A stretch of 24,317 bases of DNA from positions 1 to 24,317 of the IMG/VR virus record IMGVR_UViG_3300031989_000059; one strand, given 5' to 3'. Source of the stretch: a virus. The notes below the pieces were generated by a model, which made no database searches, had not been told where the DNA came from, and saw only the letters and a program-made list of their open reading frames with translations. Below are positions 10,115 to 21,517 of this stretch, piece after piece. Within the stretch, counting starts at the first letter, position 1. Each line of letters begins with the position of its first letter. Made by a program: the position numbers and the translations under genes.

Positions 10115-10876
10115 TCAGCTGGCGCGTGTCAGCCGGCGGCTCTCCTCGTCGAACTCGTAGAAGTCCGGGTTACGGTTCGCGACCAGCCTCAGCAGATCGT
10201 CGAGCAGATCATCCAGCTTCACCGGTTCATCCGGCTTCCCCACTCGAAAAGCCTTGACCACCGATTGTTCAGGCGATGCCTCGACCAGCAGGATGTAAAA
10301 TCGCTCGAACTGCTCGTCCCGATCATGCGGATCATTCCGCCCGTCGAAAAGCTGCAATCGCTGATGCGCGTTGATGAATGTCGAACGGCGCTTCGTAGAC
10401 CCGTCCGCGCTGGTCTTGTTGTCCGTCGCCGCGCCAGAATCGAGAAAGAACAGCCCTGCCAGCACTGCATAGGGGAAACGCCGGTGCAGCGTGACGGCCT
10501 CGATCAGCATGTCGCCGCGCCGGTTCGTGAGGTTCTTCTGGAAATTTTTGGTTTTCGGGTCGCGAAAGTTGATCGTCTTCACGGATATGCCGAGCAACAG
10601 GCCCGAGACTTCGGTCGCCCACGTCACATCCACCTTCTTCGCGCCGATCCCGCCCGCCATCCGGCGCTCCGCACCCGATCCGCCGACTTCGCCGGGTTCT
10701 GCGGGCCGCGCTTCCGCACACCCCCGCTTGCGAAGCTCGGCACCAATCGCAACGGCCACCGCCGCCGACATCTCCTCGCTATAGCGCTTTTTCGCCTCTC
10801 GATCGCTGTCGACCGGCTTGGGCCGCAGACTGCGCAGCGCGGCATCAAGGCGGCGTTCAAACGGTGACACGTTCAC
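10115..10876 (-). CDS. Type II restriction endonuclease (family unassigned)
   Basis: A 253-aa protein encoded directly after, and overlapping by 20 nt, a type II adenine methyltransferase gene, the usual place for the cognate endonuclease. The core at residues 81-150 holds KVDVTWAT, GLLLGISVKT, then FQKNLTNRRGD and FPYAVLAGLFFLD. This could be a PD-(D/E)xK fold, with Asp83 and Lys100 at the expected spacing but Ser98 where Asp/Glu is usual. I recall similar proteins beside methyltransferases, but not their recognition sequence. GTG at 10876 is annotated; a second GTG at 10870, better placed behind AGAGG, could be the true start. It should cut unmethylated incoming DNA inside the lysogen. Confidence 0.8.
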   Translation of the reverse strand: MNVSPFERRLDAALRSLRPKPVDSDREAKKRYSEEMSAAVAVAIGAELRKRGCAEARPAEPGEVGGSGAERRMAGGIGAKKVDVTWATEVSGLLLGISVKTINFRDPKTKNFQKNLTNRRGDMLIEAVTLHRRFPYAVLAGLFFLDSGAATDNKTSADGSTKRRSTFINAHQRLQLFDGRNDPHDRDEQFERFYILLVEASPEQSVVKAFRVGKPDEPVKLDDLLDDLLRLVANRNPDFYEFDEESRRLTRAS

Positions 10877-12506
10877 CTCTCGCCCGGCTCACACGGCGCT
10901 GAAACAGATGCTCGCGCGCATCGCGAAGGGTTTTCAGCTGCCTCTTGCCAAGGCCACAATGCTTCACCAGCACCGCGCGGTCGATCAGCTCGATCGCGTC
11001 CTGGGTTTTTCCCGCGCGCAGCATCCGCCCGACCTGTGGCCGGATCGCCTCCAGATCGTCAGATGCGGCCGCGACGATCGCCGCCGACGGCACCGGCATC
11101 AGATCAGCTTCTTTCGGCTCATGCTTCAGCATGCCGCCGCCATAGGCCCGGCCGACCATCTCGCCACCCAGCAGCGATATCGTGTTCAGGCTGGCCAAGG
11201 GCAGCCATCCGCGCCCCAACTCGCGGACATCCTCGTTCAGCCGCACGCCATAGAGTGAATTGAGCACATGCGCCCGCGCGTCATTCGTCACCAGGCGGGC
11301 GCGGTCATGGTTCATGTAGGTGAAGAACAAATCTGGGCATTCGACCATCGGCACCCGCCACCAGGCGACCCGCTGGCGGCACTTGTAGCCCTGGTGCACG
11401 CCCTCACGCTCGCCCTCGGCAATATATGCACGGGCAGCAGCCGATGGCTTGTCGCCCGGGGCGAACAGGAAACACCGCTTCCCCTCGGCCGCAAGCTGTT
11501 CCCATGCCTCCTGCCCGAAAACCATCGCCTGCAGATGTTTCGACCCGGGGGGCGAGATCGGGAGCAACTCGCCGGTGCGCAGCCCGAGATGCTTCGCCTC
11601 GGCCCGCGTCAGCGTGAAGAACTTGTTGTTGCCAGTGACCGCGCCGAGATAGGTCTCGCCCCACCCCTCGATCAGGGTGGTAAACCGGGCATCGTCGACC
11701 AGCTCGGTATATTGGTCCAGCGCCTCGGCGGGCAGCAGCGCAGGCGTCCATTTCTGGTCGCCGGCAGGTGAATAGCCCACCCAGGAATCCGCCCCGATCT
11801 TTCTCAGATCATCAGGATTGCGGGCCTGGTAAACCTCGAATGCAGCGCAGCCGCCCCGCCCCTCGGCCAGCAGCAGAACGACCTCTTCCAGCACGTCCGG
11901 AAAAACCAGCTCGTCGAACAGCACCAGCTTCACCTTGGCGAAGCGCTGCAACAGGAACCGCCGAACTTCGGCCGCATAATTCACGGTCAGCAGCTCGGCC
12001 GGCAGCACCAGCCCCAGCCTGCCCTCGGGTGCCAGAAAATCGGACGCATGGATGGTGAAGGCCGCCCAGGAACTCGCAAGCCCCGTCAGGCGCACCCCCT
12101 GCGCCAGCGCTGCACGCAGGCTCTTTGCCCGGGCATCGCCAATGAACTGCTGATATCGAACAAACGGCGGATTTCCGACGACCGCGTCATAGCTTTGGCC
12201 AGGCGACGCATCGAAGAAATCGCCGACTTGGATCATGGCCCCGGCGCCGGCACCGTCCAGCCGCGCTTGCGCTTGCGCCGCCGATGGCGCGTGGATCTCG
12301 ACCCCGTTCAGCAATCCGTCGAGCCGACCACGCGCCCCCAGCGATCGCAGCCGCGCCGCCGCCGGCAACAGGAATGCAGCATCGCCGCATGACGGCTCAA
12401 GCACCCGGTCCGAACCGGATCTGATCGCCCAGTCCGTGATGAATCGCGCAAGGGCGGGCGGCGTAAAAAAAGCCCCTCTCGCCTTACGGATGGCCGGAGT
12501 GTCCAC
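10857..12506 (-). CDS. Type II DNA adenine-N6 methyltransferase, gamma class
   Basis: A 549-aa modification enzyme of the Eco57I/TaqI-like gamma class. Motif X is GAFFTPP at residues 11-17, motif I is VLEPSCGDAAFL at 35-46, and the catalytic motif IV is NPPF at 112-115. The C-terminal half (from about 230) is the target-recognition region, with WGETYLGAVTGNNKFFTL and an IAEGEREGVHQGYKCRQR segment typical of this class. The GTG start is chosen because GGGGAG lies 8 nt upstream; a longer reading from TTG lacks a site. It protects the lysogen's DNA from the overlapping endonuclease. A TTGACA promoter lies upstream, so the pair can be expressed in the prophage state. Confidence 0.93.
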   Translation of the reverse strand: MDTPAIRKARGAFFTPPALARFITDWAIRSGSDRVLEPSCGDAAFLLPAAARLRSLGARGRLDGLLNGVEIHAPSAAQAQARLDGAGAGAMIQVGDFFDASPGQSYDAVVGNPPFVRYQQFIGDARAKSLRAALAQGVRLTGLASSWAAFTIHASDFLAPEGRLGLVLPAELLTVNYAAEVRRFLLQRFAKVKLVLFDELVFPDVLEEVVLLLAEGRGGCAAFEVYQARNPDDLRKIGADSWVGYSPAGDQKWTPALLPAEALDQYTELVDDARFTTLIEGWGETYLGAVTGNNKFFTLTRAEAKHLGLRTGELLPISPPGSKHLQAMVFGQEAWEQLAAEGKRCFLFAPGDKPSAAARAYIAEGEREGVHQGYKCRQRVAWWRVPMVECPDLFFTYMNHDRARLVTNDARAHVLNSLYGVRLNEDVRELGRGWLPLASLNTISLLGGEMVGRAYGGGMLKHEPKEADLMPVPSAAIVAAASDDLEAIRPQVGRMLRAGKTQDAIELIDRAVLVKHCGLGKRQLKTLRDAREHLFQRRVSRARGERVTV

Positions 12507-12541
12507 GTCGCGCTCTCCCCTTTGCCGACTGAGACTTCGGC

Positions 12542-12569
12542 GGTCTACCGCACCGTCGATAGCTGTCAA
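12542..12569 (-). promoter_or_regulatory. Probable sigma-70 type promoter for the R-M operon
   Basis: On the minus strand, in the 99-bp gap before the methyltransferase start, TTGACA (12564-12569) is followed after 16 bp by TAGACC (12542-12547). The -35 box is perfect and the -10 is poor, which is common in alphaproteobacteria. The predicted start lies about 30 nt upstream of the GTG. It would drive methyltransferase then endonuclease as one message. Confidence 0.5.
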
Positions 12570-12605
12570 CAAAGCTGTGAAGAACCTTTGGGGACCATAC
12601 CACCA

Positions 12606-13427
12606 TCAAGCCCCGAACCGCTGCTTGGCGCGCGGCGACCATTGCTCCTCCCCGCGCCGCACCGGCTCGCCATCGCGGCCGACCGACAGGTCGGCTATGA
12701 TGGTAACCAGCATCGTATCCGCGGCGATGGCCCCTTCGAATGCGGCCTCCGTCAGCTCGTCGAGATGCTCGCGAATAGCGAGGCTCCACTGAAACTCGGA
12801 ACGGTGCTGGATGCCGTCGGCTGAGATCACCCCCTCGATGGCGCGCAGCAGGATGTTCTGCGACTGCTCGCTCGACACGAAGTATTTGAGCGAGGCGAAG
12901 AGCGTGTCTTCGTCGGGATCAAGGGCGGCCGCATATTCCAGTATCTCGTCCAGCGGCGGCTCGCCGCTCCAGTCCTTCTTGATCCACATCTCGTTGATGA
13001 AGCGGACGATCGGCAAATGCTCGCGCGGATCCCAATAGCCGTCGCAGCGCGCAATGAAGGCCAGCACATTCAGCCCGGCGCGCAGCACCCCTGCGCGCGA
13101 TCGCGTCAGCCCGAAATAAGGTCGGCCGGCAACCTTGCGGTCAACCACGAACCCGGCGAACCACCTTGCGTCGCCCAGCACCTCGCCCGTCTCCGGATCG
13201 ATGACCTCGCGGATCCGATCCAGGCGGAAGGCCCGGTATCCCCGCTCGCGATGGCACAAGGCTTCGATGCAGATGCTCGTCTCGCGCTGCACCTGACGCC
13301 GGCATTCGATCAGCCGGGTGGCGTCATCATCGCCGTAGAGAATGTGAATCATCCGTCCGGTGATGCTCTCACCGCTTGCTGCCGCCGCCTCGCTCATTGC
13401 CCCCCCAAGCCGCTCCGTGCGGGCCAT
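12606..13427 (-). CDS. WYL-TerB domain protein of the lysogeny cassette
   Basis: This 273-aa protein appears to fuse two domains. Residues of roughly 30-95 resemble a WYL domain, ending in the diagnostic pattern EALCHRERGYRAFRLDRI. Roughly 110-225 resembles TerB/DjlA-type helical domains, with two DG turns: AFIARCDGYWDPREHLPIVRFI and AIEGVISADGIQHRSEF. WYL domains sense ligands, often nucleic acid or nucleotide signals, in phage-defence regulators such as BrxR and CapW. TerB domains occur in membrane-stress and tellurite modules. No helix-turn-helix is seen, so it is not a typical WYL repressor. The start is uncertain: 13427 (AGGTGAT upstream) or 13397. It lies between the repressor operon and the R-M genes. 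Confidence 0.72.
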   Translation of the reverse strand: MARTERLGGAMSEAAAASGESITGRMIHILYGDDDATRLIECRRQVQRETSICIEALCHRERGYRAFRLDRIREVIDPETGEVLGDARWFAGFVVDRKVAGRPYFGLTRSRAGVLRAGLNVLAFIARCDGYWDPREHLPIVRFINEMWIKKDWSGEPPLDEILEYAAALDPDEDTLFASLKYFVSSEQSQNILLRAIEGVISADGIQHRSEFQWSLAIREHLDELTEAAFEGAIAADTMLVTIIADLSVGRDGEPVRRGEEQWSPRAKQRFGA

Positions 13428-13581: not shown

Positions 13582-14166
13582 TCAGCGGGCCTGTGGCGCA
13601 AAAGGATCTGCGGGCACGTGTCGTGAGCGACGCTCCTGCTGCGCCACGGTATCCTTCAGGTTTGCAACGCAATCACGCCCACTGGCGATCGCTGCGCCGC
13701 TGCGCGCAAGTGAAAACTGTTCGAGAACGGTCTGCCGATCGTCATCGATCTTCAGGAAAAAAGTGACGTCTGAACCCTTGATCAGTCGGTCTATATCGTC
13801 CTGCTCAACCGCGATCGTGAGGCTATTGTCTTCGAAAGAGATGGCTTTGTGGAGAAAGGCCTCGTCGGCCGCAAGCATGTAGACCTCACGCTCATCGCCT
13901 TTGCGCACCGACCAGCCACTGTTGCCGATCGTGATCAGGTGGCGAGGACCGGCATGCAACAGGATACGCAGCACCGAGGGCCGAGGCCCGTTGAGCTCAA
14001 CTTTGTGGACCGCACAGGCATTCTCGACCGGGCTGATCTCCCACGGTCCTATCGCGTTCGATCCGGCTGGCGCAGGCACCGCGGTCGCGATCAGCATAGC
14101 GGCAGCAAGCCGGTAAGCTACGCGTCGAAATGGCCGACAGCCGATTTCTGTCGATCGTTTTTTCAT
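13582..14166 (-). CDS. Exported protein translationally coupled to the phage repressor
   Basis: This 194-aa protein has a clear Sec signal peptide: a basic start (KKRS...RPFRRVAYR), a hydrophobic core LAAAMLIATAVPAPA, and a likely cut after APA near residue 34. The mature part, beginning near GPWEIS, has two cysteines that could form a disulfide (one early in NACAVH, one late in RDCVANL) and repeated beta-type segments. The pattern recalls uncharacterised periplasmic proteins of sphingomonads. Its ATG overlaps the repressor stop (ATGA), so it should be made whenever the repressor is, that is, in the lysogen. A superinfection-exclusion or lysogenic-conversion role is inferred from this position; no family function is recognised. 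Confidence 0.8.
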   Translation of the reverse strand: MKKRSTEIGCRPFRRVAYRLAAAMLIATAVPAPAGSNAIGPWEISPVENACAVHKVELNGPRPSVLRILLHAGPRHLITIGNSGWSVRKGDEREVYMLAADEAFLHKAISFEDNSLTIAVEQDDIDRLIKGSDVTFFLKIDDDRQTVLEQFSLARSGAAIASGRDCVANLKDTVAQQERRSRHVPADPFAPQAR

Positions 14167-14588
14167 TCGCCCGTTTCGAACTCGCGCAGGATCTGGCGTT
14201 GCAGGCGGCCGAGGCTGGCGGGCAGTTTGGCCGCCAGTGCGGCGGCGACTTCGGTGCGGCTCTTCAGCTCGACGGTCTCAAGCAGCTCCTCGAACATGCG
14301 CGCCAGCACCGGCTCGGTCGGAACCGCCACGGGCATCGACAGGACGCGGAACGATGTTCGGGCTGGCGGCGGCTCGGCCTCCGGGCTGGGGTCGTTAATT
14401 TCGCCCGTTAGATACTCCGGAGTGGTGCGAAGCTCGCGAGCGATCTGCAACAGATATGGCGACGACCGCACGTTACGTCGGATCATGCCGTTGATCGTCG
14501 ATTGCCGCGTCCCGATCCTGCGCGCGAGTTCCGACTGCGAGAGGCCCACCGCTCGCATTCGTTCCTCGATTCGCGCGCCTAACGACAT
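14163..14588 (-). CDS. Prophage repressor with XRE helix-turn-helix
   Basis: In this 141-aa protein, residues 3-60 form a lambda-type helix-turn-helix (GLSQSELARRIGTRQSTINGMIRR), followed by the XRE-typical phrase LLQIARELRTTPEYLTGE. The C-terminal half is helical, probably for oligomerisation, with no S24 peptidase Ser/Lys dyad, so it is not a self-cleaving repressor. It reads away from the Cro-like gene across a region with two palindromic operators. No ribosome-binding site precedes the ATG, and an operator ends only 10 nt upstream, so the maintenance message may be leaderless as in lambda PRM. The stop overlaps the exported-protein start. Confidence 0.88.
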   Translation of the reverse strand: MSLGARIEERMRAVGLSQSELARRIGTRQSTINGMIRRNVRSSPYLLQIARELRTTPEYLTGEINDPSPEAEPPPARTSFRVLSMPVAVPTEPVLARMFEELLETVELKSRTEVAAALAAKLPASLGRLQRQILREFETGE

Positions 14589-14597
14589 GTCGATGAG

Positions 14598-14617
14598 ACT
14601 AACGCGATCACGTTAGT
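14598..14617. promoter_or_regulatory. Operator 1: perfect palindrome CTAAC-N8-GTTAG
   Basis: ACTAACG (14598-14604) and CGTTAGT (14611-14617) are exact inverted repeats around 6 bp, directly upstream of the repressor ATG. It shares half-sites and spacing with the second palindrome 47 bp away. This is the expected binding site of the repressor and/or the Cro-like protein and would give autoregulation of the repressor gene. Confidence 0.82.
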
Positions 14618-14642: not shown

Positions 14643-14666
14643 GGCCTAACCCATCGGAGTTAGGCC
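14643..14666. promoter_or_regulatory. Operator 2: 24-bp palindrome with the same CTAAC-N8-GTTAG core
   Basis: GGCCTAAC (14643-14650) and GTTAGGCC (14659-14666) are exact inverted repeats around 8 bp. The right arm ends one base before the GTG start of the Cro-like gene, and the loop contains its GGAG site. A bound repressor would block the rightward operon; in RNA the same palindrome could also hide the ribosome-binding site. TTGACG just upstream (14638-14643) may be the -35 box of the rightward promoter. Confidence 0.82.
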
Positions 14667-14667
14667 A

Positions 14668-14937
14668 GTGACCATGTCGGCGATAGACCCAAGCGAATCT
14701 GCAGACCCAAGCGAATCTGCGCTCGAAGCAGCCATCCGGGTGGCCGGCTCTCAGTCCGCGCTCGGCCGCCTGATCGGCAAGCGTCAGTCCACGATCAACG
14801 GGTGGCTCCTTAGGAATCAGCGCATCCCGGCCGAGTTCGTCCTGAAGATTGAGGCGGCTACGGGCATTTCCCGGCACCGTCTGCGTCCCGACATCTACCC
14901 CATCGACCCGCAGCCCGACCTGGGTGCGAATCGCTGA
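14668..14937 (+). CDS. Cro/YdaS-type helix-turn-helix regulator
   Basis: In this 89-aa protein, residues 18-75 resemble the YdaS/Cro family: ALEAAIRVAGSQSALGRLIGKRQSTINGW is a compact helix-turn-helix, and IPAEFVLKIEAATGISRHRLRPDIYP is the family's usual ending. It faces the repressor gene and is the first rightward gene, the place of cro. The GTG at 14668 lies 8 nt after GGAG; an ATG two codons later is also possible. The N-terminus contains DPSESA twice, from an exact 17-18-bp tandem duplication. It probably competes at the CTAAC-N8-GTTAG sites to open lytic growth. Confidence 0.86.
   Translation: MTMSAIDPSESADPSESALEAAIRVAGSQSALGRLIGKRQSTINGWLLRNQRIPAEFVLKIEAATGISRHRLRPDIYPIDPQPDLGANR
14686..14721. 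repeat. 18-bp tandem duplication in the Cro-like gene
   Basis: GACCCAAGCGAATCTGC followed by one variable base occurs twice in a row (14686-14703 and 14704-14721), encoding the hexapeptide DPSESA twice. Near identity means a recent duplication; it lengthens the disordered N-terminus without changing the frame. Confidence 0.93.
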
Positions 14938-16769: not shown

Positions 16770-16843
16770 GCGGCACCCGCGCCCCCATGATCGAGGGCGC
16801 GATGCGCGCCGTTATCGAGCAGACGGAGGTCAACCATGGCTGA
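16766..16843 (+). CDS. Possible 25-aa coupling ORF before the GapR homologue
   Basis: GTG overlapping the previous stop opens a frame ending in TGA that overlaps the next gene's first codons by 8 nt. It would bridge the only gap in an otherwise overlapping gene string, but it is too short to judge by composition. It may simply serve to couple translation. Confidence 0.33.
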
Positions 16844-17075
16844 CACGGTCGCGGCAGATCAGCTGCGCCTGTTCATCGAGCGTATCGAGCGGCTGGAAGA
16901 AGAGAAAAAGGGCATCGCCGACGATATCCGCGACGTTTTCGCCGAGGCCAAGGCCATGGGCTATGACGTCAAGACGATGCGGGCGATCGTGCGCCTGCGC
17001 CGAATGGAAAAGCAGGCGCGGCAGGAAGCCGACGCGCTGCTCGAAACCTATCGCAACGCGCTGGGGCTGGACTGA
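16836..17075 (+). CDS. GapR-type (DUF2312) nucleoid-associated protein
   Basis: A 79-aa protein that fits the full length of the GapR/DUF2312 family. It has a coiled-coil start ([48 protein letters not shown]) and the closing [15 protein letters not shown]. Caulobacter GapR forms a ring-like clamp on overtwisted DNA, aiding topoisomerases during replication and transcription; that is established for the cellular protein. The phage copy lacks the usual short N-terminal extension. It has a strong GGAGG site and overlaps the next gene by one base. It may help relieve supercoil stress in phage DNA or interfere with host GapR. Confidence 0.92.
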
Positions 17076-17248: not shown

Positions 17249-17577
17249 GCGAGCTGTTCGATCCGATGGCGCTTGAGGCCGCTCTGCGCCCCTGCTGCTG
17301 CCCGGCATGCCGCGCCGACGGGCGGATGTTTCCGCACGATCCGGCGCAGCTGTCGTTCATCGAGGTGCCGGTGGCATCGGCCGCGTGCTGTGCCGATGGC
17401 AGCTCGGGGGAGCGCGCCGGAGTTCGCCCCCCTTCACCGTCCGACATACCGGCGGATCCCGCCGCCGATATGGGCAGCCCGCTGGCCGCCCCGCCGAAAG
17501 TCGCCACGCGGCCGAAAGCGGGACGCGCCACGGCGCGCCGTGCAACGTCCCCCAGGCCGGAGGCTCGACATGCCTAG
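17245..17577 (+). CDS. Small cysteine-rich protein upstream of the ParB-like gene
   Basis: A 110-aa protein with an unusual CCCPACRADGRMFPHD motif near residues 18-33, a second CC pair around residue 51, and a long Pro/Ala/Arg-rich, probably disordered tail. The cysteines could bind zinc. The ATG overlaps the previous stop and the end overlaps the ParB-like start by 8 nt. The tail frame has shadow-like composition, so the real conserved part may be only the first ~50 residues. No family recognised. Confidence 0.58.
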   Translation: MSELFDPMALEAALRPCCCPACRADGRMFPHDPAQLSFIEVPVASAACCADGSSGERAGVRPPSPSDIPADPAADMGSPLAAPPKVATRPKAGRATARRATSPRPEARHA

Positions 17578-19495
17578 CACGACCGTCACGATCGACAAGC
17601 TGGAGATCTCGCCGTTCAACGTCCGCTCGGACAAGCGCGACATCGATGCCACCTCTGCGCTGGAGGCATCGCTGCTGGCCGAGGGGCAGCTGCTGCCGCT
17701 GATCGTCCATCCGATGCTCGGCCGGCGCGACCGGTTCGGCGTGTTCGCCGGCGGGCGGCGGCTGCGCGCGTTCCGCCGGCTGATCGAGCGCGGAGCGCTG
17801 CCGGCAGATCACGGGATCGACGTCGTCGTTCGCGATCTCCCGCCGGGCAAGCTGATTGAGGTGTCGACGACCGAGAACCTGATCCGCCGCGATCTGCGGC
17901 CCTATGAAATCGCGGCCGCCGTGCTGGCCGCCCATGGCAAAGGCAGGACCGCAGACCAGATCGCCGAGGCACTGGGGCAGGAACTGCTCTGGGTGCGCCG
18001 GCAGCTGCGGCTGGCGCGGCTCGCGCCCGAAATCTTCGCGGCGTTCGCGGCCGGGGAACTGGATATGGACCAGGCGGCCGCCTACGCCGCCACCGAGGAT
18101 CATGACCTTCAGCTGGCCGTGTGGGCCGAGCTGAAGGGCCAGTCCTTCGCCACCGCGAGCGCCATCCGCTCACGGCTCAAGGTCGGCGATCATGAGCTGG
18201 ACCGGCTGCTCCGGTTCGTCGGTGCCGAGGTCTACCGCGACGCAGGCGGGCGATATGAGCTCGACCTGTTCTGCGCGGATCCGTTCCAGCGCGGCCGCGT
18301 GGTCGATGAAGGGGTGCTGCGCCAGCTGGCCGACACGGCCCTCGCCGCCTTTCGCGACGATGTGCGGCGGCGCTGCGGCCGCCCCGACATCCGCTTTGTC
18401 GTTCAGCCGCCGCGCAACGATTTTGGGACGGACTATACCTTGCGTATCGATGCCGGCGCTGACGGCGACGACTTCAGCCTGCCCGACGGCGAAGTCGTCG
18501 CACATGTGCAGCTGTCACGCGACTGCCGGCCGGAGGTCAGCTTCTGGTGGGCGAGCCGCGCAGCCAAGCATGGCAGGCGGGCGAGCGCGCCCGCCGACGC
18601 GCCGTCGCCGGCCCCGCAGGCGGCGCTCCACCCCGAACATGATGGCGGCACCGCGCGCCGGGCAGCCAATGCCGACCTGCGCGAGCGCGATGGCGTCTCG
18701 GCGGCGAGCGTGGAGATTTTTCGCACGGCCCGCCGCGCGGTGCTGCGCGCGCTGCTGATCTGGGACGCCGAAGGCGGGTTGCCGTCCGTCGCCCATGATC
18801 TGCTGGTGTGGGGGCAGCTGCGCATCGCCGATGGCCTGCCCGATACCGCGCGGCGCTTGGGCATGGTGGTCAGGCTCGGGGCATCGCCCGATCCGGCCGC
18901 GCACGACGCGATCCTTGCGGCCATGCCTGCCATCGAACTGTGGGACAGCGCGCTCCAGGAAGTGATGTCCCGCCCCGCCTTTGCGCTTGAGGACGACCAG
19001 GACGCCTTTCGCGCCTTCCGGTGTGAGAGCGCGCGGATCAAGCGCCTCGCCGCGGCGATTGTGGCAGGCCTGGCGCTTGAGCGGTCGCTCAACGCGGATG
19101 GCTATGCGGTGCCATTCCACAACGCGATCGCCGACGAATGCGACGCGGCCGGCGACAACGGCCATGTCGTGCGCAAGCTGTGGCACCCGGACGCGCGCTT
19201 TCTTGGCCTGCTGAACAGCCGGCAGCTGCTGTCCATTGCCGAGCCTTTTGCCCAGCCCGATGTGATCGCCCGCTGGGCGAAGCCTTACAAATCGGCGCGC
19301 GTGCCGGCCGAGCTGGCCCAGCTGCTCGCCGGCACCATGGACGGCGGCTATCTGTCGCCGGCTGCCGCCGTCGCGGCGCAGGCATGGGTGCATCCGCTCC
19401 TCGCATTCCCGGCCGGGACGGACGGGCCTGCTGTGGCGGACGCTGACGCCGGCATGGCGACAGGCGACGATGTGCTCGAAAGGGCCGGCGAATGA
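17570..19495 (+). CDS. Long ParB/KorB-type DNA-binding protein
   Basis: In this 641-aa protein, residues 1-115 are a ParB N-terminal domain. ISPFNVR is box I, AGGRRLRA (60-67) corresponds to the GERRxRA CTP-binding box, and TENLIRRDLRPYEIA (101-115) is the ENxxRxDLxPxE box. Residues 120-170 form the ParB helix-turn-helix (RTADQIAEALGQELLWVRRQLRLARL). The remaining ~450 residues have no recognised domain, making it about twice the usual length. No ParA partner is present, so plasmid-like partition is doubtful; phage relatives may regulate or spread on phage DNA. GGAGG precedes the ATG, and the stop overlaps the next start. Confidence 0.9.
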   Translation: MPSTTVTIDKLEISPFNVRSDKRDIDATSALEASLLAEGQLLPLIVHPMLGRRDRFGVFAGGRRLRAFRRLIERGALPADHGIDVVVRDLPPGKLIEVSTTENLIRRDLRPYEIAAAVLAAHGKGRTADQIAEALGQELLWVRRQLRLARLAPEIFAAFAAGELDMDQAAAYAATEDHDLQLAVWAELKGQSFATASAIRSRLKVGDHELDRLLRFVGAEVYRDAGGRYELDLFCADPFQRGRVVDEGVLRQLADTALAAFRDDVRRRCGRPDIRFVVQPPRNDFGTDYTLRIDAGADGDDFSLPDGEVVAHVQLSRDCRPEVSFWWASRAAKHGRRASAPADAPSPAPQAALHPEHDGGTARRAANADLRERDGVSAASVEIFRTARRAVLRALLIWDAEGGLPSVAHDLLVWGQLRIADGLPDTARRLGMVVRLGASPDPAAHDAILAAMPAIELWDSALQEVMSRPAFALEDDQDAFRAFRCESARIKRLAAAIVAGLALERSLNADGYAVPFHNAIADECDAAGDNGHVVRKLWHPDARFLGLLNSRQLLSIAEPFAQPDVIARWAKPYKSARVPAELAQLLAGTMDGGYLSPAAAVAAQAWVHPLLAFPAGTDGPAVADADAGMATGDDVLERAGE

Positions 19496-19761: not shown

Positions 19762-20027
19762 TGGATCCCCTGATCGCCGATCTCGTCCGGGCCATTGCTC
19801 GCGGCATGGCTGCCGCCGATGCTGCCCGCTCCATCATCGAATCCGGAGGTTCTCCGTGCAACGCTGCGCCATCTACGCCCGCTTCTCGACCGACATGCAG
19901 AACGAGCGGTCGGCCGAGGATCAGGTCCGCGACTGCCGTGCCCGAGCGGAGCGCGAGGGCTGGAGCGTCGTCGAAATCTACACGGACCTCGCAATCTCGG
20001 GCACCAGCAACCGGCGGCCGGGCCTGA
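19761..20027 (+). CDS. Possible short ORF overlapping the recombinase start out of frame
   Basis: An ATG in TGATG coupling with the previous gene begins DPLIADLVRAIARGMAAADAARSIIES, a plausible helical peptide of about 30 residues. The frame continues past the recombinase start for 170 nt with shadow-like composition (Pro/Ser/Arg/Thr). It could be a real small gene whose tail overlaps the recombinase, or a remnant that mainly delivers ribosomes to the recombinase start. At most the first third looks protein-like. Confidence 0.35.
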   Translation: MDPLIADLVRAIARGMAAADAARSIIESGGSPCNAAPSTPASRPTCRTSGRPRIRSATAVPERSARAGASSKSTRTSQSRAPATGGRA

Positions 20028-21484
20028 ACGCGCTGCTCGCAGATGCGGCCGGCGGCGCGTTCGACGTCTTGCTGGCCGAATCGCTCGACCGGATTTCGCG
20101 CAATCAGGCGGACATGGCCGCGATCTACCAGAAGCTCAGTTTCGCCGACATTCGGATCGAGACGCTCTCGGAAGCCCGGGTCGATGAGATCGTGCTGGGC
20201 TTCCGGGGCGCGATGTCGTCGCTCTATCTCAAGGATCTCGCCGACAAAATCCGGCGCGGGCACCGCGGGGCGCTGGCGCGCGGCCGGATCCCGGGCGGCC
20301 TCTGCTACGGCTATGACGTCGTGCATGGCCTGGACGAGCATGGGCAGCCGGTGCGCGGCCTGCGCCGGATCAACCCCGACCAGGCTGAAATCGTGCGCCG
20401 GGTGTTTCGCGAATATGCGGCCGGCCGATCGCCAAAGGCGATCGCGCACGACCTGAACCGCGAGGGCGTGCCGAGCGCGCGGGGCGGCGAGTGGCGATCA
20501 TCGACCATCGTCGGGAATCGCGCGCGGGGGCAGGGCCTGCTCCACAACCCGATCTATATCGGCCGTTACCTCTACAACCGCGTCACGATGAAGCGCGACC
20601 CGGAAACCCGCAACCGGGTGTCACGGCCGAACCCGTCGAGCGAGCGGCAATATCTTGAGGTGCCCGAGCTGCGGATCGTCGATGACGAGCTGTGGAATGC
20701 CGCGCAGGATGTGCGCCGCAACCTCGCCGCCCAGCCCCTGCCCCGCCGTATGCGGCCGCGCCACCTGTTCGCCGGGCTGCTGCGCTGCGGGGTCTGCGGC
20801 GGCAGCGTGACGGTGGTCACGCAGGACCGTCTGGGCTGCACGCGCCGGCGCGAGGCCGGCACCTGCAACAACGCGCAGAAGATCTCGGTCGGTGCGATGC
20901 AGGCACGGGTGCTGAGCGGGCTTGAACACCGGCTGCTGTCGCCCGATGCGGTGTCGCTTCTGGTGCGCGAATATCATCTTGAGCGTGATCGCCGGCAGCG
21001 CGACGAAACGCGCGCGCGCCGCGCGCTCGAGCGGAAGCTGCGTCAGGCGGAAGCGGCCGTCGACCGGCTGGTGGCCGCGATCGCGGCGGGCGGCTGCGAC
21101 TTCTCGGATGTGCGCGACGCACTGGCCGGCAAGACGGCCGAACGCGACCGGCTGCGCGCCGAGCTGGCCGAAGACGAGGCCGCGCCCGTGATCGCGCTTC
21201 AGCCGCAAATCGCCGACGCCTATCGACAGCGCGTGGCGGAACTGGTCGCGGCGATCGGCACGGGCGGCGAAATCGACGACGACACCCGGGCCGGCCTGCG
21301 CGCCCTGGTGCAACGCATCGAAATGCGGCCGGGTGCCGATGGCACTGCCGAGCTCGATGTTACCAGCTCGCTTGAGACCGCGATCGCAATGGCGACCGGC
21401 CGAGCAACGAAAAGAAGGGGGGCGTCGCTGACGCAAGTGATGGTAGCGGAGGAGGGACTCGAACCCCCGACACGCGGATTATGA
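19856..21484 (+). CDS. Large serine recombinase (phage integrase)
   Basis: A 542-aa integrase that inserts and excises the prophage. The resolvase domain carries the catalytic Ser11 in YARFSTD and the arginine motif LDRISR (77-82). The recombinase domain follows (about 145-290; GLCYGYDVV, INPDQAEIVRRVF, NPIYIGRYLYNR). Next is the zinc ribbon with Cys311, Cys314, Cys328 and Cys337, then a coiled coil (345-470). The GTG start has GGAGG 6 nt upstream. The last ~14 residues (ending EEGLEPPTRGL) are encoded by the 3' part of the tRNA-Met gene, so the reading frame runs through the attachment site. It is the final gene of the rightward operon, so excision can be tied to early expression. Confidence 0.96.
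   Translation: MQRCAIYARFSTDMQNERSAEDQVRDCRARAEREGWSVVEIYTDLAISGTSNRRPGLNALLADAAGGAFDVLLAESLDRISRNQADMAAIYQKLSFADIRIETLSEARVDEIVLGFRGAMSSLYLKDLADKIRRGHRGALARGRIPGGLCYGYDVVHGLDEHGQPVRGLRRINPDQAEIVRRVFREYAAGRSPKAIAHDLNREGVPSARGGEWRSSTIVGNRARGQGLLHNPIYIGRYLYNRVTMKRDPETRNRVSRPNPSSERQYLEVPELRIVDDELWNAAQDVRRNLAAQPLPRRMRPRHLFAGLLRCGVCGGSVTVVTQDRLGCTRRREAGTCNNAQKISVGAMQARVLSGLEHRLLSPDAVSLLVREYHLERDRRQRDETRARRALERKLRQAEAAVDRLVAAIAAGGCDFSDVRDALAGKTAERDRLRAELAEDEAAPVIALQPQIADAYRQRVAELVAAIGTGGEIDDDTRAGLRALVQRIEMRPGADGTAELDVTSSLETAIAMATGRATKRRGASLTQVMVAEEGLEPPTRGL
21441..21484. other. Inferred right attachment site within tRNA-Met
   Basis: The 3' half of the tRNA (CCA end to anticodon loop) is shared with the end of the recombinase reading frame. 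Integration into the 3' end of a tRNA usually leaves a copy of this segment at both prophage ends; the second copy would lie left of this window and is not seen. The core limits are approximate. Confidence 0.65.
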
Positions 21485-21517
21485 TTCCGCTGCTCTAACC
21501 AGCTGAGCTACTCCGCC
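21441..21517 (-). tRNA. tRNA-Met (CAT), elongator type
   Basis: The 77-nt gene on the minus strand begins GGCGGAGTAGCTCAGC and ends CTCCGCTACCA with CCA encoded. The acceptor stem, D arm (AGCTCAGCTGGTTAGAGC), anticodon stem GCGGA/TCCGC with loop ATCATAA (anticodon CAT), and T arm (GGTTCGAGTCC) are all intact. G-C at the acceptor end and the sequence pattern match alphaproteobacterial elongator tRNA-Met rather than the initiator. It remains whole after prophage insertion; the sequence beyond its 3' end is now of phage origin. Confidence 0.96.

What the first reader, a model, noticed from the sequence alone, without database searches (positions are those of the whole stretch)
13582..14588. Exported protein gene coupled to the prophage repressor
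The ATG of a signal-peptide protein overlaps the repressor stop (ATGA). This makes it the gene most surely expressed in the lysogen. Periplasmic proteins made by prophages often block DNA entry of other phages or alter the host surface. No known exclusion family is recognised, so it may be an undescribed superinfection-exclusion or conversion factor.
Basis: inference. Interest (0 to 1): 0.7.

Follow-up and report, generated by a model that had tools for sequence, protein, structure and literature searches.

The report
Prophage periplasmic IalB-fold cargo protein
A virus dormant in a sphingomonad bacterium makes, coupled to its own off-switch protein, a secreted protein from an undescribed family that recurs in other prophages and is sometimes fused to the TonB domain that drives outer-membrane gates, so it may alter or close the cell surface to other viruses, though no effect has been tested.

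Summary
On the minus strand the repressor gene (14163-14588) and a 194-aa signal-peptide protein (13582-14166) overlap by ATGA. A divergent YdaS/Cro-type gene and two palindromes mark the genetic switch. No family library recognises the protein.

Sensitive searches show what it is: a diverged member of an unnamed Sphingomonadales periplasmic family (68 bits against a profile built without it; best of 5,000 shuffles 10). AlphaFold/Foldseek gives the IalB fold (Bartonella IalB, 3dtd, E=1e-4). One branch is a chromosomal operon gene. All six nearest relatives lie in phage or mobile-element contexts: a viral contig, three prophages, one gene beside a large serine integrase, and one plasmid-like element. 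Four of these six, and further relatives, carry a C-terminal TonB_C domain; the window protein does not.

It is therefore recurrent phage cargo placed where lysogenic expression is likely. In a sister prophage the same slot encodes an exported nuclease. A role at the envelope in lysogens (superinfection exclusion or conversion, perhaps through TonB-dependent receptors or DNA entry) is the best reading but untested. First-reader interpretation: partly supported.

The parts
13582..14166 (-). Exported 194-aa IalB-fold protein (subject of the finding), P0001
   Evidence: ORF; profile homology; fold
14065..14166 (-). Predicted signal peptide, residues 1-34 (cleavage-like APA|G)
   Evidence: Read from sequence; alignment shows family homology starting within and after this segment
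13621..14058 (-). IalB-fold domain, residues about 37-182; conserved W42, C51, S86, A159, C166
13585..13617 (-). C-terminal tail VPADPFAPQAR (residues 184-194); in TonB_C-fused relatives the TonB_C domain follows this motif
14163..14588 (-). Prophage repressor (HTH_3, 141 aa)
14163..14166 (-). ATGA overlap of repressor stop and start of the exported protein
14598..14617 (.). Operator-like palindrome
14643..14666 (.). Operator-like palindrome with 8-bp perfect arms
14674..14937 (+). Divergent Cro/YdaS-type regulator
12606..13427 (-). WYL-domain protein, next gene downstream on the same strand (154-bp gap)
10115..12572 (-). Restriction-modification-like pair: Eco57I-class N6 methyltransferase (10857-12572) and overlapping partner (10115-10876)
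19856..21484 (+). Large serine recombinase whose 3' end runs into tRNA-Met (21441-21517 -): right end of the prophage

Best explanation
The gene is prophage cargo: a secreted, disulfide-type periplasmic protein with the IalB fold, translated from the repressor message by an ATGA overlap and so probably made while the prophage is silent. It belongs to an undescribed Sphingomonadales family whose phage-borne branch is often fused to a soluble (signal peptide, no inner-membrane anchor) TonB C-terminal domain. The most likely job is to act at the envelope of the lysogen, blocking another phage's use of an outer-membrane (TonB-dependent) receptor or the passage of its DNA through the periplasm. Shown here: coupling, family, fold, phage/mobile association, TonB_C fusions in relatives. 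Inferred: export, lysogenic expression, envelope target. Not shown: exclusion.
For: Coupling and switch. Family membership: profile built without it scores 68 bits vs 10.3 for the best of 5000 shuffles; full-length chromosomal relatives at 22-30%. Fold: top six Foldseek hits all IalB 3dtd, E 1e-4, TM 0.67 on target. Nearest six relatives by BLAST: L151 viral contig, among capsid and tail-region genes; G277 beside ParB- and ArdC-like genes; G713 next to a tape-measure gene; G173 inside an att-delimited prophage in tRNA-Asn; G647 beside a large serine integrase; G338 between terminase and a DUF3987 primase/helicase. G005 member is near tape-measure and neck genes. TonB_C fusions: PF03544 tested in L085/G005, L094 and a plasmid copy; by alignment in G338, G277, G647, G713. 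Repressor-linked slot holds other exported proteins in sister prophages: L082, and SNase PF00565 in L084. Precedents: Cor inactivates the TonB-dependent receptor FhuA (PMC11436027); SieA, gp15 and Ltp block DNA injection, and escape from gp15 and Ltp maps to tail tube/tape-measure genes (PMC10883804).
Against: No expression or infection data. The window protein lacks TonB_C, so the TonB link is only by family. The family also has a resident chromosomal branch with no known link to phages. L151 carries it in the tail-gene region, where late rather than lysogenic expression is possible, and its copy is split by an apparent frameshift. The AlphaFold model used only two sequences (mean pLDDT 70), and the protein fails Pfam IalB.
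Confidence: 0.4

Rival explanations
1. Lysogenic conversion without exclusion: the protein helps or changes the host envelope (outer-membrane stability, TonB-dependent nutrient or metal uptake, stress resistance), benefiting the lysogen but not acting on other phages.
For: The family has a conserved chromosomal operon branch (family gene, small coiled-coil lipoprotein, exported ~240-aa protein) in Sphingomonas, so a cell-envelope role exists without phages; an IalB-domain protein (RgsG) is an essential periplasmic protein of Sinorhizobium polar growth (PMC7327166).
Against: The phage-borne branch is distinct from the chromosomal one and linked to mobile elements; similar slots hold an exported nuclease, which fits defence better than housekeeping.
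Confidence: 0.35
2. Passenger: a host gene captured by the prophage, diverging with no selected function.
For: Atypical codon-position GC; no close homologue in any collection; the same gene is frameshifted in L151.
Against: Intact full-length frame with the family's invariant residues (W42, C51, S86, C166) kept at about 25% identity; repeated presence in independent prophages.
Confidence: 0.15
3. A lytic-cycle protein (lysis, release or tail-related) that happens to sit beside the repressor here.
For: In L151 and G713 the family gene is directly beside a tape-measure-type gene, on the same strand.
Against: Position varies between prophages (beside the repressor here; near the att end in G173; between terminase and primase/helicase genes in G338), and here it is on the repressor message, which is expected to be low in lytic growth (inference).
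Confidence: 0.08

Closest known systems
IalB family (PF06776; structure 3dtd)
   Same: Same predicted fold; signal peptide; profile-profile match in the C-terminal SL.G..AA segment above 100 column shuffles (score 26.8 vs 17.5 at most).
   Different: No PF06776 hit at E<=1; family has its own cysteine pattern and, in relatives, a TonB_C fusion.
Chromosomal Sphingomonas operon protein (e.g. L087/G006, L091/G016, WP_347091520.1 'hypothetical protein')
   Same: Full-length homologue, 22-28% identity, same IPxDPFA tail.
   Different: Sits in a conserved three-gene operon on chromosomes or chromids, not in phages; forms its own group on the tree, with weak deep support.
'Energy transducer TonB' with soluble N-terminal domain (WP_243455979.1, plasmid p1 of Sphingosinicella)
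   Same: Its N-terminal domain is homologous.
   Different: The window protein has no TonB_C domain.
Cor of phi80/N15 and other prophage exclusion proteins (SieA, HK97 gp15, Ltp)
   Same: Small prophage-encoded envelope proteins; Cor targets a TonB-dependent receptor; gp15 and Ltp act on tape-measure-dependent DNA injection (PMC11436027, PMC10883804).
   Different: No PHROG or PADLOC match; different fold and export mode; effect on infection untested.

Membership tests
Unnamed Sphingomonadales periplasmic family (A1) | Full-length profile match, W/C/S/C pattern, DPFA tail | tested here: met
   68 bits with a profile lacking the query; best shuffle 10.3; alignment
Phage/mobile branch of that family | Nearest relatives lie in phages or mobile elements | tested here: met
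   Six of the six best hits with neighbour evidence; tree groups it with these but support is weak
IalB (PF06776) | Pfam gathering score | tested here: not met
   No hit at E<=1
IalB (PF06776) | IalB fold | tested here: met
   Foldseek top hits 3dtd, E 1.3e-4, probability 1.00; model pLDDT 70
TonB energy transducers | TonB_C domain | tested here: not met
   Absent in the window protein; present in relatives
Superinfection exclusion proteins | Expression alone blocks infection | not testable with these tools
   Needs a bench test
Superinfection exclusion proteins | Sequence match to a described exclusion family | tested here: not met
   PHROGs, PADLOC, NCBIfam, Pfam
Lysogeny-expressed prophage morons | Transcribed in the lysogen | not testable with these tools
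   Only the ATGA coupling to the repressor is seen

The most novel reading that the evidence does not exclude
Sphingomonadales phages carry an undescribed family of soluble IalB-fold proteins, many fused to a free TonB C-terminal domain, that protect lysogens by occupying TonB-dependent receptors (decoy TonB) or by obstructing tape-measure-guided DNA entry in the periplasm; the window protein is a minimal, repressor-coupled member.
Probability: 0.22. Interest if true: 0.75.

Novelty: new variant of a known kind. Interest (0 to 1): 0.5.

Why it matters
It gives an unnamed prophage gene a family, a fold and a set of relatives. It points to recurring phage-borne proteins that join an IalB-type domain to a TonB domain, which as far as the papers searched show has not been described. 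If they close TonB-dependent receptors or DNA entry, they would be a new route of superinfection exclusion in Sphingomonadales, a group rich in TonB-dependent receptors, and the paired natural forms (with and without TonB_C) make the hypothesis directly testable.

Tried and rejected
Single-sequence scans of viral, genome, plasmid and phage collections found nothing; only profile or whole-genome searches worked. A weak PDB sequence hit (uracil carboxylate decarboxylase, E 0.06) was dismissed as chance. The single-sequence AlphaFold model (pLDDT 55) was not used for fold search. A profile that included the TonB_C domain (A3) lit up nearly every genome through ordinary TonB proteins and was discarded for counting. 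One search was mis-addressed ('of' a locus id) and one structure job named a non-existent alignment. The viral structure library gave only weak partial matches. A terminator-like and promoter scan near the switch was at chance level. Literature searches for phage-encoded TonB proteins returned nothing relevant. A twin-arginine reading of the N-terminus (RRVAYR) was considered and set aside because relatives lack it.

Full report
What the window is. The record is a 24.3-kb IMG/VR virus contig carrying the right part of a prophage in a sphingomonad host: capsid, protease, portal and terminase genes at the left, a regulatory region near 14.6 kb, and a large serine recombinase (19856-21484) whose 3' end runs into tRNA-Met (21441-21517, minus). 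Beyond it lie bacterial genes (ferredoxin reductase, glutathione S-transferase). The best matches of the reductase are in Sphingomonadaceae (61-71% identity), so the host is a sphingomonad without a close sequenced relative in that collection.

The observation. On the minus strand, the repressor gene (14163-14588) ends in TGA that shares ATGA with the start of a 194-aa ORF (13582-14166). The repressor is an HTH_3 protein matching PHROG repressor families. It faces a YdaS/Cro-type gene (14674-14937) across an 85-bp gap holding two palindromes, 14598-14617 and 14643-14666. This is a standard lysis-lysogeny switch, and a gene coupled to the repressor is expected to be made in the lysogen (inference; no expression data). 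The ORF starts with a typical signal-peptide sequence with an APA|G site after residue 34. Its GC and third-position bias are lower than the rest, consistent with recent acquisition.

It is a real protein with a family. Pfam, PHROGs, NCBIfam and PADLOC give nothing, nor do direct searches of viral, genome, plasmid and phage collections. Searching sphingomonad genomes with the protein found full-length relatives at 22-30% identity. The alignment conserves W42, C51, S86, A159 and C166, the SGAAxA..C motif and an IPxDPFA tail. A profile built without the window protein scores this frame at 68 bits, against 10.3 for the best of 5000 shuffles, with no other window frame reported.

Fold. With only itself and its closest viral relative in the alignment, AlphaFold gives mean pLDDT 70 (mostly 75-88 in the core), a strand-rich domain with a C-terminal helix. 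Foldseek against the PDB returns six chains of one structure, Bartonella IalB 3dtd, as its first six hits (E 1.3e-4 to 1.1e-3, probability 1.00). A profile-profile comparison with 24 alphaproteobacterial IalB domains aligns 47 columns at the C-terminal SL.G..AA segment with score 26.8; 100 column-shuffled IalB profiles reach at most 17.5 and the reversed profile 9.6. The HHalign probability is low (24%), so sequence membership in PF06776 is not claimed; the fold is.

Two kinds of relatives. (a) A uniform chromosomal group in Sphingomonas sits in an operon: family gene, small coiled-coil lipoprotein (GCATKS...), exported ~240-aa protein. (b) A looser group contains the window protein. Its six best BLAST relatives are all in phage or mobile contexts: L151, a viral contig with a major capsid gene, where the gene lies in the tail region immediately before a 1704-aa tape-measure-like gene ('tape measure' here is my reading, PHROG lists that gene as unknown); G277 beside ParB-like and ArdC-like genes; G713 next to a tape-measure gene and near a phage helicase-type gene; G173 inside a prophage bounded by a 23-bp repeat at tRNA-Asn and an integrase, with terminase, tape-measure and neck genes; G647 beside a large serine integrase; G338 between a terminase and a DUF3987 primase/helicase. 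G005 is near tape-measure and neck genes, and a plasmid copy exists. The tree agrees but with weak deep support and long branches; the ranking is descriptive, as relatives are not independent samples.

TonB fusions. In G005, G338, G277, G647, G713 and the plasmid copy the same domain is followed, after the DPFA motif, by a TonB_C-type domain (Pfam-tested in G005, L094 and the plasmid copy; by alignment in the others). They begin with signal peptides and show no inner-membrane anchor by eye, unlike the membrane-anchored TonB described in PMC7014051. The window protein, L151 and G173 are stand-alone.

What sits in the same slot elsewhere. In prophage L084 the repressor (48% identical to this one) is followed by a TPR protein and an exported SNase-type nuclease (PF00565); in L082 a different exported protein follows the repressor. 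A relative of the L084 nuclease (phrog_18798) lies directly after the family gene in the G005 prophage. So envelope-acting proteins of unrelated families share these cargo slots.

Mechanism. The simplest account is a protein made in the lysogen, secreted, folded with a likely C51-C166 disulfide, and acting in the periplasm or at the outer membrane. The TonB_C fusions suggest interference at TonB-dependent receptors: a free TonB domain could occupy receptor plugs (inference). Precedent: Cor of phi80/N15 inactivates FhuA, a TonB-dependent receptor (PMC11436027). The placement beside tape-measure genes in several relatives, and precedents in which exclusion by gp15 or Ltp is escaped through tape-measure changes (PMC10883804), suggest instead a block to DNA entry. 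I cannot choose between these, nor exclude plain lysogenic conversion: the chromosomal branch shows the fold has a phage-independent role, and an IalB-domain protein is essential for polar growth in Sinorhizobium (PMC7327166).

Verdict. Observation confirmed; interpretation partly supported. The gain is a family, a fold, phage association and TonB fusions; function remains a hypothesis.

Noticed in passing
window 10115-12572 (-): Restriction-modification-like pair: Eco57I-class N6 methyltransferase plus overlapping 253-aa partner; both are conserved side by side (58% and 63% identity) on a Bradyrhizobium plasmid.
   Followed up: partly
window 12606-13427 (-): WYL-domain protein directly upstream of the methyltransferase pair and downstream of the exported protein; possible regulator of a defence module on the lysogenic strand.
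   Followed up: no
window 16836-17075 (+) and 17273-19495 (+): A GapR-like DNA-binding protein (PF10073, E 9e-35) and a 740-aa ParB-type protein; homologues occur in related prophages (ParB in L082 and L083, GapR in L083 and L084).
   Followed up: partly
L084 7305-7691 (+) and L136 8823-9242 (+): Exported SNase-type proteins (phrog_18798) as cargo: one behind a related repressor, one directly after a TonB_C-fused relative of the window protein.
   Followed up: partly
L151 9944-10500 (+): Closest relative of the window protein is split into two frames at a T-rich run; sequencing error or real frameshift not resolved.
   Followed up: partly
L132, L133, L139, L140, L153: Conserved chromosomal operon in Sphingomonas: family protein, small coiled-coil lipoprotein (GCATKS..REQIAPVSQR), exported ~240-aa protein, function unknown.
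   Followed up: partly
window 14685-14720: Perfect tandem 18-bp duplication (AGACCCAAGCGAATCTGC) inside the 5' end of the Cro/YdaS-type gene.
   Followed up: no
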